A stretch of DNA of 64,000 nt, from the NCBI GenBank assembly GCA_913056185.1, contig CAJXLV010000009.1, forward strand, positions 19,967 to 83,966, given 5' to 3'. The stretch is from an uncultured Bacteroidota bacterium. Lineage in GTDB: Bacteria > Bacteroidota > Rhodothermia > Rhodothermales > Salinibacteraceae. The notes beneath the pieces were generated by a model. It was not told where the DNA came from, did not search any database, and worked only from the letters and a program-made list of their open reading frames with translations. Made by a program: the position numbers and the translations under genes. This document shows positions 18,573 through 21,754 of this stretch, one piece after another (the first letter of the stretch is position 1; every line of letters starts with the position of its first letter).

Positions 18573-19706
18573 TCAGTCTGCCGAGACAGTGAGGGCGTCG
18601 TCGGCGTCTGGCGGAGCCGTCTCGGGAGGCGGAGTCGCATCGTCCGGAACCGTAGACGCAGGCAGCGCCTCCAGCACCGCCGAGACGAGGTCCGTGCGTT
18701 CCTGGAGGGCGTTGTGGGCGGGGATGCCCAGCCGCTGGCGGATGTAGCGACGGCCGACGCCGCTATCCGTCACGGGCCCAGTGAGCGCCGTAATGGCAGC
18801 GCGGTACCGGCGCCGAAAGGTATGAGCGGCGGCCCAGGCCCCGGCCAGGTCGGTTGCGGCAACGACGTGCGCCTCGACAAACGACTGCAACTCCATGTCC
18901 GTGAGCAGGTCGTCCACGCCGTAGTAGCCCACAAATCCATCGCCCATTTCGGCCACGATCACGTCCAGCGTCGCGGTATCGTTGAGGTGCTGGATGATGC
19001 CCTTCGCCACGGGGGTGATGGCGTCTTCCACCGTACACGCAATGCCCACGTCGGTGAACGTAGAGACGGCAGAGGCTCCGTGTGCCTGCATCCGGCGAAC
19101 GTCGCGCAAGAGCGCGGCGCCGGTCAGCTTGGCCGCCCCCACCTGTAGGCCGACTTCCGTGAGCCCCTCCACGATCTGGCAGGCCGCCTTCGTCTTTCCC
19201 GTATCCATCGCCGTGCCACTGATCACCACAAGCGGAACGGAGGCGGAAAGGCGGTCGACCATTTCCAGGGCCTCCTCCTGGATGCGAGCGTGCAGCCATT
19301 GCCCCTCCCGCTCCACCATGGCCGCCCCGAGCACCTCCACCGGCAGCGCGGGGCCGAGGTCGGGGTGGGGGGCTGTGCAGCGCCCCATCAGGCCGCCCAT
19401 ATTGAGTACATGCAGGGTGTCGCCGGGGTCGATGTGGCGCGGAACCCGCCCGCTGTAGCCCTTGAGGGCTTGCCGTCCGCCCAGGGTGCCCACCAAGACG
19501 TCGCCCGCCTGGATGTGACGAAAAACGCCGTCGTCGCACTCGACCTCGTCGTACTGCGTTTTCTCATCCAGCGCCCGCACCACCACCAGGTAGCCGTGCT
19601 GGGCCACTACGTACGGAGAGAGAGGAACGGGCGAGCTCACCTCGCAATGGGCCGTGCTGGAGGCAATCTTGTCGACCGCACAGGTCTGTAGGGTGTCGTC
19701 GATCAT
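18573..19706 (-). CDS. P-loop NTPase of unknown function inside the arginine operon
   Basis: 377 aa from the ATG at 19706; the longer frame to 20258 overlaps argG and is a shadow. Residues about 35-115 look like a small beta-rich domain. A P-loop follows at 164-172 (GTAMDTGKT), of the type seen in BioD/CobQ-like and MobB-like NTPases, then VGAAKLTGAALLRD and IVAEMGDGFVG, possible switch segments. The C-terminus (about 345-377) is an acidic, Pro-rich tail. I do not recognise the family with certainty. It lies 65 bp behind argG and 79 bp ahead of argC, so it is probably co-transcribed with them. A role in arginine metabolism is suggested by position only. Confidence 0.75.
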   Translation of the reverse strand: MIDDTLQTCAVDKIASSTAHCEVSSPVPLSPYVVAQHGYLVVVRALDEKTQYDEVECDDGVFRHIQAGDVLVGTLGGRQALKGYSGRVPRHIDPGDTLHVLNMGGLMGRCTAPHPDLGPALPVEVLGAAMVEREGQWLHARIQEEALEMVDRLSASVPLVVISGTAMDTGKTKAACQIVEGLTEVGLQVGAAKLTGAALLRDVRRMQAHGASAVSTFTDVGIACTVEDAITPVAKGIIQHLNDTATLDVIVAEMGDGFVGYYGVDDLLTDMELQSFVEAHVVAATDLAGAWAAAHTFRRRYRAAITALTGPVTDSGVGRRYIRQRLGIPAHNALQERTDLVSAVLEALPASTVPDDATPPPETAPPDADDALTVSAD

Positions 19707-19770: not shown

Positions 19771-20985
19771 TCAGCCCCTACCGCGTTTGGGGGCGGGGCC
19801 AGTTGCTTTTTGGGCCAGGAGCGAAGGGACTGCTGCAAGCCGGGTGTAGCCTGCGGCGTCGCGCCCATCCCACAGCGCGTTTTGCTCCCCGTAGGTGGCC
19901 GTATCGGCATCAAACAGAGAGTGGGGGCTGTCCACGCCCTGCACCTGCACCCGTCCCTTGTAGAGCTGGACAGAGACGGTGCCAGCGACGACCGACTGGC
20001 TGTGGTCCAGGAAGGCTTCGAGGTCTCGCATGGCTGGGTCGAAGTACTGCCCCTCGTGCAGCAGCCGTCCGTAGGCTGCCCCCAGCTGTTGCTTGTGCAC
20101 CTGTTGCCACTTCGAGAGCACCACCTTTTCCAGTTCGCGATGGGCCGTGATGAGAATATGGGCTGCGGGGGCCTCCACGCCGATCCGGCCCTTGATGCCC
20201 AGGATGGTGTCGCCCACGTGGATGTCGCGCCCAATGCCGTGGGCGGCCCCGCGGGCATTGAGGGCTTCCACGAGGGCGACGCCGGAGAGGGCTTCGTCGT
20301 CTACGGCAATCGGGAGGCCGTCCTCGAAGGTGAGGGTGAGGGAGGCGGGCGTCTCGGGCGCCTCGATGGGGGGCACCGTATCGGGGTACGCAGACGCCGG
20401 GAGCGGGTGGGTGGCCGTCAGGGTCTCAGCGCCACCGATGGTGGTGCCCCACAGCCCACGGTTGATCGAGTAGTCTGTGGTCGCCTCTGGCACCGCGATG
20501 CCACGGGCCTCCAGAAAGGCGGTGGACTCCTCGCGACAAAGGCCGAGCGAGCGGACGGGCGCAAGAATGTCCAGGTCCTCGTCCATCAGCCGCAGTGCCA
20601 CGTCGAACCGCACCTGGTCGTTGCCCGCCCCCGTGGACCCGTGTGCGACCCGGGACGCCCCCACGTCCTGCGCTACGCGCGCCACCGCCCGCGCCTGCAC
20701 GACTCGCTCCGGCCCCACGCACAGCGGATAGACCCCGCCGCGCAGGACGTTGCCCTTAATGAGGTACGAGAGATGATCCGCATAGAGCTCTGGCCGCCCC
20801 TCCACAAGATGGTGCGCCTCCGCCCCGAGGGCGTCCGCACGGTCCGCCACCGCCTCGCGGTCCGCCGTGGAGAGGCCGCCGGTGTCCACCGTCACAGTGT
20901 GGACGGACGTGTCGTAGGTTTCGCGCAGGTAGGGAACGCAAAAGGAGGTATCGAGTCCTCCGCTAAAGGCAAGAACAATGGGCAT
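19771..20985 (-). CDS. argG: Argininosuccinate synthase
   Basis: 404 aa from the ATG at 20985, where MPIVLAFSGGLDTS places the ATP-pyrophosphatase SGGLDTS motif near the N-terminus as in all ArgG. The frame stays open upstream to 21162 across a terminator hairpin; that extension is rejected. It joins citrulline and aspartate using ATP. AHGSTGAGNDQVRFD and GLWGTTIGG segments are present. It is the first structural gene of the arginine operon and is preceded by an arginine-rich leader ORF and an attenuator-like terminator. A 15-bp direct duplication (20991-21020) lies between terminator and start codon. Confidence 0.96.
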   Translation of the reverse strand: MPIVLAFSGGLDTSFCVPYLRETYDTSVHTVTVDTGGLSTADREAVADRADALGAEAHHLVEGRPELYADHLSYLIKGNVLRGGVYPLCVGPERVVQARAVARVAQDVGASRVAHGSTGAGNDQVRFDVALRLMDEDLDILAPVRSLGLCREESTAFLEARGIAVPEATTDYSINRGLWGTTIGGAETLTATHPLPASAYPDTVPPIEAPETPASLTLTFEDGLPIAVDDEALSGVALVEALNARGAAHGIGRDIHVGDTILGIKGRIGVEAPAAHILITAHRELEKVVLSKWQQVHKQQLGAAYGRLLHEGQYFDPAMRDLEAFLDHSQSVVAGTVSVQLYKGRVQVQGVDSPHSLFDADTATYGEQNALWDGRDAAGYTRLAAVPSLLAQKATGPAPKRGRG

Positions 20986-21027: not shown

Positions 21028-21062
21028 AAAAAAGGCGCTGGCTCGTGAGAACCAGCGCCTTT
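21028..21062 (-). terminator. Intrinsic terminator in the argG leader (attenuator)
   Basis: Read on the minus strand, a 14-nt arm AAAGGCGCTGGTTC (21062-21049), loop TCAC, and 3' arm GAGCCAGCGCCTTT (21044-21031) pair over their full length with one U-G wobble. A run of six T (21033-21028) follows. It lies about 43 bp before the argG ATG, with no larger minus-strand gene upstream that it could serve, so it is best read as an attenuator. Confidence 0.88.
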
Positions 21063-21103
21063 GGCAACAAGGCGGCAATGCCGCGTCAAATGGGAGGGGC
21101 GCC

Positions 21104-21214
21104 TTATGCATCCATCCCCCAGACGCTGGTTCGAACCGTGGACGTGTGCAGTCGTCGCACACGTCGGGCTCGACGTCGGGTCGTGGGGGCGATGTGAGAA
21201 AGGCGGCGTGTCAT
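21104..21214 (-). CDS. Arginine-rich leader peptide of the arg operon
   Basis: 36 codons, ATG at 21214-21212, TAA at 21106-21104. Ten residues are Arg: 3, 4, 13, 14, 15, 17, 18, 20, 21 and 28; the core is RRRARRVRR (13-21). Six of the ten Arg codons are CGA. The ORF ends 41 nt before the 5' arm of the intrinsic terminator that precedes argG. Codons 28-31 overlap GAACCAGCG (21132-21124), which can pair with CGCTGGTTC in that arm. Arg-codon clustering, position and alternative pairing match leader peptides of amino-acid operons regulated by ribosome stalling. No clear Shine-Dalgarno site is seen, as for many genes in this window. Translation is inferred. Confidence 0.8.
   Translation of the reverse strand: MTRRLSHIAPTTRRRARRVRRLHTSTVRTSVWGMDA
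21124..21132 (-). promoter_or_regulatory. Antiterminator segment
   Basis: Minus-strand GAACCAGCG (21132-21124) is the exact complement of CGCTGGTTC in the terminator 5' arm (21057-21049). Nine continuous pairs would block formation of the terminator. A ribosome stalled at the Arg cluster (codons 13-21) would leave it free; a ribosome at the stop codon would be close enough to mask much of it. Confidence 0.7.
21142..21164 (-). promoter_or_regulatory. Leader hairpin over the Arg codons
   Basis: ACGTGTGC and its perfect complement flank a 7-nt loop within the leader ORF, covering Arg codons 17-21. Its place matches the pause/protector hairpin of classic attenuators. Confidence 0.55.
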
Positions 21215-21343
21215 AACGGCTTCTACACTAAGAGGTGGATCTGGCTTTCGCAAGGTCCGGCCCGGCCCTCTTCGGTAAAGAAATTGTTAATCAAGAAATG
21301 AAGGCGGTGCGGCCGTGCCCGAACGGCGAAGACCGTGGCGGGT

Positions 21344-21754
21344 ATGAACACCGTCGTTCTCAAGTCCTTCTCCAATCTCTCAGAGATCCCCTGCACCGCC
21401 TGCATGGATGCGTCGCCGTTGTTCGATCCCGAATACTTCCCCGTTATTGCCGCCACGCTGATTGGGTTTGCCGGCCTGGCCGCGGCGTTGCTGGTGCCCA
21501 TCTGGCGGTTTTTGAACCGAGAGCAGGAGGTGGCGGAAGACTGGACGCCGGAGGCCGTCGAGAAGCGTCTCCGGGAGCTCCGCACCGAGGACGTTGATGG
21601 TGAGGCCGTCGACAACGAGGAGGCGCGCGCGAGCGCCCCGTCCTCCGATGCCCCGTCTGATGCCCCGTCCTCCGATGGCCCGTCCGATGCGGCGGCGGGG
21701 CAGGGCGCGGCGGGGCAGAGCACAGCGGAGACGTCTGCGTCCCCGTCCCACTGA
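21344..21754 (+). CDS. Small single-pass membrane protein, unknown function
   Basis: 136 aa from the ATG at 21344. A GTG at 21335 and an internal ATG at 21404 are alternative starts; the latter gives a short N-terminus directly before the membrane segment. One transmembrane helix (FPVIAATLIGFAGLAAALLV) is followed by a charged region with WTPEAVEKRLREL and a low-complexity tail of repeated Ser-Asp-Ala-Pro units. The topology suggests a cytoplasmic C-terminus. No family is recognised. It is divergent from the arginine operon leader and ends just before the ComEA-like gene, which runs the other way. Confidence 0.55.
   Translation: MNTVVLKSFSNLSEIPCTACMDASPLFDPEYFPVIAATLIGFAGLAAALLVPIWRFLNREQEVAEDWTPEAVEKRLRELRTEDVDGEAVDNEEARASAPSSDAPSDAPSSDGPSDAAAGQGAAGQSTAETSASPSH

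What the first reader, a model, noticed from the sequence alone, without database searches (positions are those of the whole stretch)
21028..21214. Arginine leader-peptide attenuator in front of the argG operon
Seen: on the minus strand a 36-codon ORF (21214-21104) has ten Arg residues, with seven in the nine-residue stretch RRRARRVRR. Forty-one nt after its stop codon begins a 14-bp intrinsic terminator with six T, about 43 bp before the argG ATG. A segment inside the ORF, GAACCAGCG (21132-21124), is exactly complementary to CGCTGGTTC in the terminator 5' arm, and a perfect 8-bp hairpin covers Arg codons 17-21. Established knowledge: his, trp and similar operons use this architecture, in which a ribosome stalled at scarce-charged codons frees an antiterminator. 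Inference: low Arg-tRNA would let transcription into argG and the seven genes downstream. Most described bacterial arginine operons are controlled by ArgR, so a ribosome-mediated attenuator here appears unusual.
Basis: partly seen in the sequence, partly recalled or inferred. Interest (0 to 1): 0.93.

Follow-up and report, generated by a model that had tools for sequence, protein, structure and literature searches.

The report
Arginine-codon attenuator of the arg operon
In front of the arginine-synthesis genes of a Salinibacter-like bacterium lies a short reading frame packed with arginine codons followed by a predicted transcription terminator, likely a switch that lets the genes be read when arginine runs short; the same layout recurs in 65 of 87 corresponding regions across the order, where the hallmark domain of the usual arginine repressor turned up in only one of 103 genomes.

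Summary
Observation confirmed; interpretation well supported. The 36-codon minus-strand ORF (21214-21104; 10 Arg, RRRARRVRR), a 14-bp predicted terminator with six T (21062-21028) and the complementary segment GAACCAGCG (21132-21124) are all present. Of 87 argG upstream regions in the order, 65 (13 of 14 families) have an Arg-run leader plus terminator, against 2 of 87 on the reverse strand and 0 of 435 shuffles; all 16 genomes of one family fail the test. The leader segment coevolves with the terminator arm it pairs with: over 28 genus representatives own pairs are more stable than swapped pairs (z -6.6, 0 of 20,000 permutations), and the signal lies inside the ORF, just after the Arg codons. 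The ArgR C-terminal domain is in 1 of 103 genomes of the order, beside argG, and that locus has no leader. The promoter sits so close to the leader AUG that the transcript is probably nearly leaderless. Arg-run leaders also precede arg operons elsewhere in the phylum (19 of 36 loci pass a shuffle test). The kind is known (trp/his-type attenuation); an arginine version standing in for ArgR was not found in the papers searched. Transcription, translation and arginine response are untested.

The parts
21104..21214 (-). leader peptide ORF, 36 codons plus stop, 10 Arg
   Evidence: Arg-run leaders plus terminator in 65 of 87 argG upstream regions of the order
21152..21178 (-). Arg codon cluster, codons 13-21 (CGA CGT CGA GCC CGA CGT GTG CGA CGA)
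   Evidence: Arg codons listed; proposed stall site (inferred)
21141..21165 (-). hairpin overlapping Arg codons 17-21 (10 bp with one G-U), candidate pause/protector hairpin
   Evidence: predicted fold; its conservation was not tested
21121..21132 (-). antiterminator 5' segment GAACCAGCGTCT inside the leader ORF
   Evidence: 12-bp duplex with the terminator 5' arm, -22.8 kcal/mol; coevolves with the arm across genera
21049..21062 (-). terminator 5' arm AAAGGCGCTGGTTC (also 3' partner of the antiterminator)
21031..21044 (-). terminator 3' arm GAGCCAGCGCCTTT
   Evidence: hairpin pattern found nowhere else in this genome at up to 2 mismatches
21028..21033 (-). six-T tract of the predicted intrinsic terminator
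21225..21253 (-). predicted promoter TTGCGA-N17-TAGTGT, 10 nt before the leader ATG; predicted start within a few nt of the AUG
   Evidence: -10 to start codon distance of 4-12 nt in 48 of 65 loci; no start site mapped
19771..20985 (-). argG, argininosuccinate synthase, first gene of the presumed operon
   Evidence: Pfam PF00764/PF20979
11773..19679 (-). seven further genes in the same direction: DUF1611-like protein, argC, argD, carbamoyltransferase, argB, M20 peptidase (argE-like), argH
   Evidence: Pfam domains for six of them (gene names inferred from domain and order); DUF1611-like by homologues, whose lengths suggest a start some codons before 19679; co-transcription inferred

Best explanation
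The leader ORF with its Arg codon cluster, the complementary segment just after that cluster and the predicted terminator in front of argG likely work together as a ribosome-mediated transcription attenuator that would couple the arg operon to the charging of arginine tRNA. Shown by sequence: the leader ORF, the terminator-like hairpin, and a segment that can pair with the terminator's 5' arm; leader and hairpin recur in 65 of 87 regions of the order, and the two sides of the antiterminator coevolve. Inferred: transcription starts at or within a few nucleotides of the leader AUG; a ribosome follows RNA polymerase closely; when charged Arg-tRNA is scarce it stalls at codons 13-21 and leaves 21132-21121 free to pair with the terminator 5' arm (21062-21049), so the terminator cannot form and polymerase enters argG and the seven genes downstream; when Arg-tRNA is plentiful the ribosome runs to the stop codon, covers that segment, and the terminator ends transcription. 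In this order the device probably stands in place of the ArgR repressor.
For: Anatomy. Conservation: 65 of 87 argG upstream regions in the order pass the leader-plus-terminator test, from 28 genera and 13 families; the same test gives 2 of 87 on the reverse strand and 0 of 435 dinucleotide shuffles. Two more loci (L018, L061) have a leader and a bulged terminator by eye. Arg runs: 60 of 65 are reached by at most 5 of 100 shuffles. Coevolution: own leader-arm pairs beat swapped pairs, 28 genus representatives, z -6.6, 0 of 20,000; 13 family representatives, z -4.6, 0 of 20,000; the part inside the ORF alone z -7.2; four control regions z -2.05, +0.77, -0.91, -1.45. Geometry in the window: with Arg13, Arg17 or Arg21 in the A site the 12-bp antiterminator is the best fold once the 5' arm is out; with the ribosome at the stop codon only the terminator forms. 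Usual regulator missing: ArgR N-domain 0 of 1 in this genome; ArgR C-domain in 1 of 103 genomes of the order, this genome not among them, and the one that has it (G073, locus L082) lacks the leader. In the genus the terminator sequence occurs once in 8 of 13 genomes, the same 8 in which argG was found. Rfam: nothing at the leader reaches a gathering score.
Against: No transcript, ribosome profile or expression data. Antiterminator strength varies: 34 of 65 loci are reached by at most 10 of 200 shuffles, 31 are not, and some (L022, L025, L078) are worse than most shuffles. A three-state folding test over all loci was weak: 42 of 65 behave as expected but so do 85 of 195 shuffled controls; and in the ribosome-free leader the 5' arm is predicted to pair upstream in 42 of 65 loci, so a protector hairpin that restores termination without translation is not general. 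One control region (upstream of the leader) also gave z -2.05. Leaders show no strong third-position bias (differences 124/168/178 at positions 1/2/3 in 31 same-genus pairs) and few synonymous changes at kept Arg codons (13 of 197), so translation is argued from Arg retention, not from a clean coding signature. Sixteen of 16 genomes of family f15 and six others fail the strict test. One genome with a leader, G037 (L022), has five partial matches to the ArgR N-domain that pass Pfam's cut-off (33 bits, 45 of 70 positions), though no C-domain match was reported for it.
Confidence: 0.92

Rival explanations
1. The leader encodes an arrest peptide that senses free arginine through the nascent chain (as recalled for the fungal arginine attenuator peptide), so stalling would depend on peptide sequence and on high, not low, arginine.
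For: The Arg-rich stretch is strongly basic and could slow the ribosome by itself; an Arg-codon leader that acts on translation is known (S. aureus rbfL).
Against: Outside the Arg run the peptides differ widely between genera, and within genera 204 of 767 non-Arg codon pairs are replaced. A stall at the Arg run frees the antiterminator in the window's folds, which fits low-arginine induction.
Confidence: 0.04
2. The hairpin is a plain terminator or an RNA element with another ligand, and the Arg-rich ORF is a by-product of GC-rich palindromic DNA such as CGACGTCG.
For: CGA and CGT codons are far commoner in the leaders than in argG, which might reflect RNA structure. Same-genus comparison shows little codon-position bias.
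Against: Arg runs recur in different peptide contexts (LRRRRRF in L020, RRLRRRP in L043, RRLPTRRIRR in L050) and in loci outside the order; the region that coevolves with the terminator arm lies inside the ORF after the Arg codons and not after the stop codon. Nothing in Rfam reaches a gathering score here.
Confidence: 0.03
3. The operon is controlled mainly by a protein regulator at the promoter (not ArgR), with the attenuator a minor trim.
For: Several f5 loci carry a regulator-like reading frame directly upstream, and two of them (L019, L039) have it without a leader (its type was judged by eye, no family search).
Against: No such reading frame was seen directly upstream of argG in the window; ArgR domains were not found in this genome.
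Confidence: 0.1

Closest known systems
trp, his, leu, ilv, thr and phe operon attenuators of Proteobacteria (trp/his-type ribosome-mediated transcription attenuation; architecture recalled)
   Same: Short leader ORF with a run of codons for the end product, antiterminator sharing the terminator's 5' arm, intrinsic terminator before the first gene.
   Different: Arginine codons and the arg operon; predicted near-leaderless transcript; different phylum. [quoted passage not shown]
Sinorhizobium meliloti trpL attenuator
   Same: The leader RNA starts with the ATG of the leader ORF and may act as a leaderless mRNA (PMC7298713, passages).
   Different: Tryptophan; Alphaproteobacteria.
Staphylococcus aureus rbfL
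   Same: Leader peptide whose Arg codons sense arginine limitation (PMC13009471, passages).
   Different: Acts on translation of rbf by covering its ribosome binding site; two Arg codons; not an arginine-synthesis gene; starvation lowers expression.
Salmonella orf34-speF leader
   Same: Consecutive Arg codons in an upstream ORF read arginine supply (PMC6386406, abstract and outline).
   Different: Controls putrescine synthesis through Rho, ribosome access and RNase G, not an intrinsic terminator of an arg operon.
Pseudomonas aeruginosa carA leader
   Same: Leader peptide and proposed attenuation before a gene shared by arginine and pyrimidine synthesis (PMC4997734, passages).
   Different: There arginine is said to act at the transcriptional level and the attenuation is assigned to pyrimidines.
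Leader peptide attenuation reported in Flavobacterium psychrophilum
   Same: Leader peptides upstream of amino-acid operons in a flavobacterium (PMC9723704, passages).
   Different: The passages name no arginine case; the supplementary tables could not be read here, so overlap with the flavobacterial Arg leaders cannot be ruled out.

Membership tests
ribosome-mediated (trp/his-type) transcription attenuator | short leader ORF with clustered codons for the regulated amino acid | tested here: met
   10 Arg in 36 codons; 65 of 87 loci in the order, null 2 of 87 and 0 of 435
ribosome-mediated (trp/his-type) transcription attenuator | intrinsic terminator between leader ORF and first structural gene | tested here: met
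   14-bp hairpin and six T, 21062-21028; by sequence only, termination not measured
ribosome-mediated (trp/his-type) transcription attenuator | antiterminator mutually exclusive with the terminator, placed after the regulatory codons | tested here: met
   12 bp with the 5' arm; coevolution z -6.6, in-ORF part z -7.2; single-locus strength significant in 34 of 65
ribosome-mediated (trp/his-type) transcription attenuator | stall at the codons exposes, and ribosome at the stop covers, the antiterminator segment | tested here: inconclusive
   Clear in the window; across loci 42 of 65 against 85 of 195 shuffled controls
ribosome-mediated (trp/his-type) transcription attenuator | pause or protector hairpin over the regulatory codons | tested here: inconclusive
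   10-bp hairpin over codons 17-21 in the window; conservation not tested; ribosome-free arm still pairs upstream in 42 of 65 loci
ribosome-mediated (trp/his-type) transcription attenuator | leader peptide is translated | not testable with these tools
   No ribosome profiling; Arg kept at 197 of 234 Arg-bearing codon pairs within genera
ribosome-mediated (trp/his-type) transcription attenuator | operon expression rises on starvation for the amino acid | not testable with these tools
   No expression data
ArgR/AhrC-controlled arg operon | ArgR encoded in the genome | tested here: not met
   PF01316 0 of 1; PF02863 no match in G000 in a search of 103 genomes; the genome is 93.91% complete, so a missed gene is possible
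T-box (tRNA-sensing leader) | T-box covariance model match | tested here: not met
   Only a tRNA elsewhere in the window at gathering score; at the leader, four sub-threshold matches up to E 5, none a T-box

The most novel reading that the evidence does not exclude
Arginine leader peptides are the ancestral control of arginine synthesis in the Bacteroidota/Rhodothermota/Balneolota assemblage: where ArgR is absent, the arg operon is typically headed by an Arg-codon leader, read out through an intrinsic terminator in the Rhodothermales and through a terminator-less structure in Balneolales, Flavobacteriia and Sphingobacteriia, and ArgR and the leader have replaced each other at the same locus.
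Probability: 0.55. Interest if true: 0.82.

Novelty: new variant of a known kind. Interest (0 to 1): 0.74.

Why it matters
Arginine synthesis is a textbook case of repressor control (ArgR; recalled). Here most families of a bacterial order in which ArgR is almost absent appear to run their arginine operon by reading Arg-tRNA supply through a ribosome, for an amino acid that the 2005 survey read here does not list under attenuators. It suggests how ArgR-less Bacteroidota may control arginine synthesis, gives a natural case of one regulator in place of another at one locus (G073 against its relatives), and offers a clean system, with a near-leaderless leader and CGA-rich Arg runs, for testing attenuation outside Proteobacteria.

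Tried and rejected
Considered and set aside: chance ORF (null rates); T-box or known Rfam leader (the best sub-threshold match was H19_3, 26.4 bits against a gathering score of 46); terminator of an upstream gene (the likeliest neighbour, 21335-21754, reads the other way; a minus-strand ORF 21223-21723 overlaps it, and which of the two is real was not tested beyond the lack of a Pfam match for the former); a second copy of the hairpin elsewhere in the genome (besides the site itself only a 3-mismatch hit on another contig); arrest peptide. The multi-locus folding test was too weak to use as evidence because shuffled controls pass it about two thirds as often as real loci. The DUF1611-like gene gave no Pfam match at E 0.001 and was followed only by one homologue search (120 of 368 hits listed). 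Rows left out: G026 and G044 (argG start missing) were not among the 87 regions; of 40 phylum loci fetched entered the shuffle count (L107 has ArgR; in L109, L112, L120 the first gene's start was not found); of 80 named loci, 25 were looked at. L104 (f34) has an Arg-run leader and a terminator, but two overlapping frames are Arg-rich there, so it is not leaned on.

Full report
What is there. On the minus strand a 36-codon ORF (21214-21104) reads MTRRLSHIAPTTRRRARRVRRLHTSTVRTSVWGMDA. A 14-bp hairpin with a TCAC loop and six T follows 41 nt later (21062-21028), 42 nt before the argG ATG at 20985. GAACCAGCGTCT at 21132-21121, inside the ORF and 19 nt after the last codon of the Arg cluster, forms a 12-bp duplex with the terminator's 5' arm (-22.8 kcal/mol, reached by 2 of 200 shuffles). 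Downstream in the same direction lie argG, a DUF1611-like gene, and genes with the domains of argC, argD, a carbamoyltransferase, argB, an M20 peptidase and argH. Close named homologues of the second gene are from Salinibacter (about 77% identity), so the genome is taken to be a Salinibacter relative; the order is taken to be the Rhodothermales because a locus titled Rhodothermales bacterium (L130) carries the same leader peptide as L024 of the order.

Conservation in the order. argG was found in 46 of 60 genomes and in 86 of 103 genomes of the order, own genome included in both. I read the upstream region for 87 argG starts. A fixed test (ORF of 12-60 codons with at least 4 Arg in 12 residues, ending 8-60 nt before a terminator-like hairpin that ends within 160 nt of argG) is met in 65 of 87. 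The same test is met in 2 of 87 reverse complements and 0 of 435 dinucleotide shuffles of the 420 nt before argG. Two further loci, L018 and L061, have a leader and a bulged terminator by eye. The other 20 are all 16 regions of family f15; L019 and L039 of one f5 genus, in which another reading frame sits directly before argG; L081, where argG seems to follow another gene closely (by eye); and L082 (see ArgR).

Antiterminator coevolution. If the leader segment really pairs with the terminator arm, each genome's segment should fit its own arm better than other genomes' arms. Over 28 genus representatives the summed duplex energy is -505 kcal/mol against -414 (sd 14) for permuted partners, 0 of 20,000 permutations as low. 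Every permutation uses each segment and each arm once, so overall pairing strength of a segment or an arm cancels. The part inside the ORF after the Arg cluster carries the signal (z -7.2); the part after the stop codon goes the other way (z +3.3), and four control regions give -2.05, +0.77, -0.91 and -1.45. Examples: GAACCAGCG with CGCTGGTTC (window), GGAACCGGCGC with GCGCCGGTTCC (L013), GGTGGA with TCCACC (L017), ACGGATC with GATCCGT (L057), GGACGGGA with TCCTGTCC, one G-U (L079). Single-locus strength varies: 34 of 65 at or below 10 of 200 shuffles, 13 at none, 31 above 10.

Switch geometry. In the window, with Arg13, Arg17 or Arg21 in the A site and polymerase just past the 5' arm, the antiterminator is the minimum-energy fold; with the ribosome at the stop codon it cannot form and the terminator does. 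Applied to all loci this test is weak: 42 of 65 real and 85 of 195 shuffled cases pass, mean arm pairing 0.78 against 0.56; and the ribosome-free arm is predicted to pair upstream in 42 of 65 loci. I do not lean on it.

Leader start. The best TTGACA/TATAAT-like promoter in the 90 nt before the chosen leader start beats 95% of its own mononucleotide shuffles in 51 of 65 loci; its -10 element lies 4-13 nt before the start codon in 38 of 65, against 13% of shuffles. Taking the 5'-most in-frame start after the promoter, the distance is 4-12 nt in 48 of 65 (no shuffle control). The exceptions include the tested loci of family f14 and most of f13. The leader mRNA is therefore predicted to be leaderless or nearly so in most loci, as described for S. 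meliloti trpL.

Codons. Leaders use CGA for 217 of 490 Arg codons; argG of the 28 loci where the gene was in hand uses it for 33 of 642, and the window's own eight genes for 4 of 201. This may raise sensitivity to tRNA charging, or may serve RNA structure (CGACGTCG is palindromic); the data do not separate these.

Peptide or codons. In 31 same-genus pairs of equal-length leaders, Arg is kept in 197 of 234 Arg-bearing codon pairs, other residues in 563 of 767. Codon positions differ 124/168/178 times, so there is no strong coding signature beyond the Arg run. That fits a codon-counting leader better than an arrest peptide.

ArgR. The N-terminal domain was not found in this genome and matched in 1 of 60 genomes, G037, as five partial matches of 45 of 70 positions at 33 bits, over Pfam's cut-off; G037 does have a leader (L022). 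The C-terminal domain is in 1 of 103 genomes of the order, G073, about 30 nt before its argG, and that locus, L082, has no leader. In a phylum sample 47 of 118 genomes have the N-domain; comparing coordinates, it lies within about 1.1 kb of argG in 43 of the 47.

Beyond the order. Two f16 loci (L088, L089) have a leader and a terminator before argG; two f17 loci (L090, L091) and L092 have short RRR leaders and terminators before a carbamoyltransferase-like gene that precedes argG; of these five only L088 passes the Arg-run shuffle test. Ten Balneola-like loci (L093-L099, L114, L117, L122) have leaders, seven of them ending in RRR at the stop codon, before an acetyltransferase-argG pair, without a T-run terminator after the leader but with an inverted repeat, seen by eye in several, between the leader and the region before the first gene; all ten pass the shuffle test. 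Of 36 phylum loci, 19 have an Arg run reached by at most 10 of 200 shuffles and 17 do not. Among 25 named loci looked at (3 of them Rhodothermales), 14 have an ORF with at least 4 Arg in 12 residues, among them Balneola sp. EhC07, Gracilimonas mengyeensis, Sphingobacterium multivorum and Croceivirga lutea (heuristic gene starts, no shuffle control).

Novelty. In ten searches of the open-access library (several listings were capped) and passages, abstract or outline of eight papers, I found no arginine transcription attenuator of an arg operon. A 2010 survey says that leader peptide systems had been shown only in Proteobacteria and Actinobacteria, and adds a histidine case in Firmicutes (PMC2965389, passages). 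A 2005 survey found none for arginine in Actinobacteria (PMC1262725, passages). Leader peptides before amino-acid operons of F. psychrophilum are mentioned without naming arginine (PMC9723704, passages). A 2021 search for structured RNAs describes cysteine-codon leaders and a carA motif in Proteobacteria (PMC8632094, passages). Subscription papers and supplements were not seen.

Noticed in passing
window 18573-19679: Second gene of the arg operon is a DUF1611-like protein (one listed homologue carries PF07755, another is named DUF1611 domain-containing); no argA/argJ-type domain was seen among the eight genes scanned, so it might supply the N-acylglutamate step (inferred).
   Followed up: partly
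L093-L099, L114, L117, L122: Balneola-like loci have short leaders, seven of ten ending in RRR-stop, before an acetyltransferase-argG pair, no T-run terminator after them, and in several an inverted repeat between leader and the region before the first gene that seems to change on both sides (for example ACATTGTTCG/CGAACAATGT in L094). Readout unknown.
   Followed up: partly
L115, L119, L127: These phylum loci have leaders with RRP near the stop followed by a similar GAAC/GGTTC hairpin without a T run (by eye).
   Followed up: no
L036, L038, L041, L042, L048, L049, L054, L058-L060, L063-L065, L067, L074, L083: All 16 regions of family f15 fail the leader test; a few keep a GGCGCTGATT-type hairpin before argG (L038, L065).
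   Followed up: partly
L082 (genome G073): The one genome of the order with the ArgR C-terminal domain has it directly before a divergent argG (48% identity) and no leader: a natural exchange of regulators, possibly by gene transfer.
   Followed up: partly
L019, L039 and several f5 loci (L044, L053, L057, L068, L085): A small regulator-like reading frame (for example GRPRVYYALTPKGRRAL) lies directly upstream; in L019 and L039 it is there without a leader, in the other f5 loci it precedes the leader.
   Followed up: no
L024, L026, L034, L035, L037: A second hairpin followed by a T-rich stretch lies over the Arg codons inside the leader ORF (weaker in L037), a candidate pause hairpin.
   Followed up: no
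genome G037: Five equally scoring places match the ArgR DNA-binding domain in part (33 bits, 127-codon frame); probably a repeated mobile-element protein, not ArgR.
   Followed up: no
genomes G001, G005, G011, G012 of the same genus: Neither argG nor the terminator sequence was found, suggesting loss of the arg operon together with its leader (G002 too, but that genome is 62% complete).
   Followed up: partly
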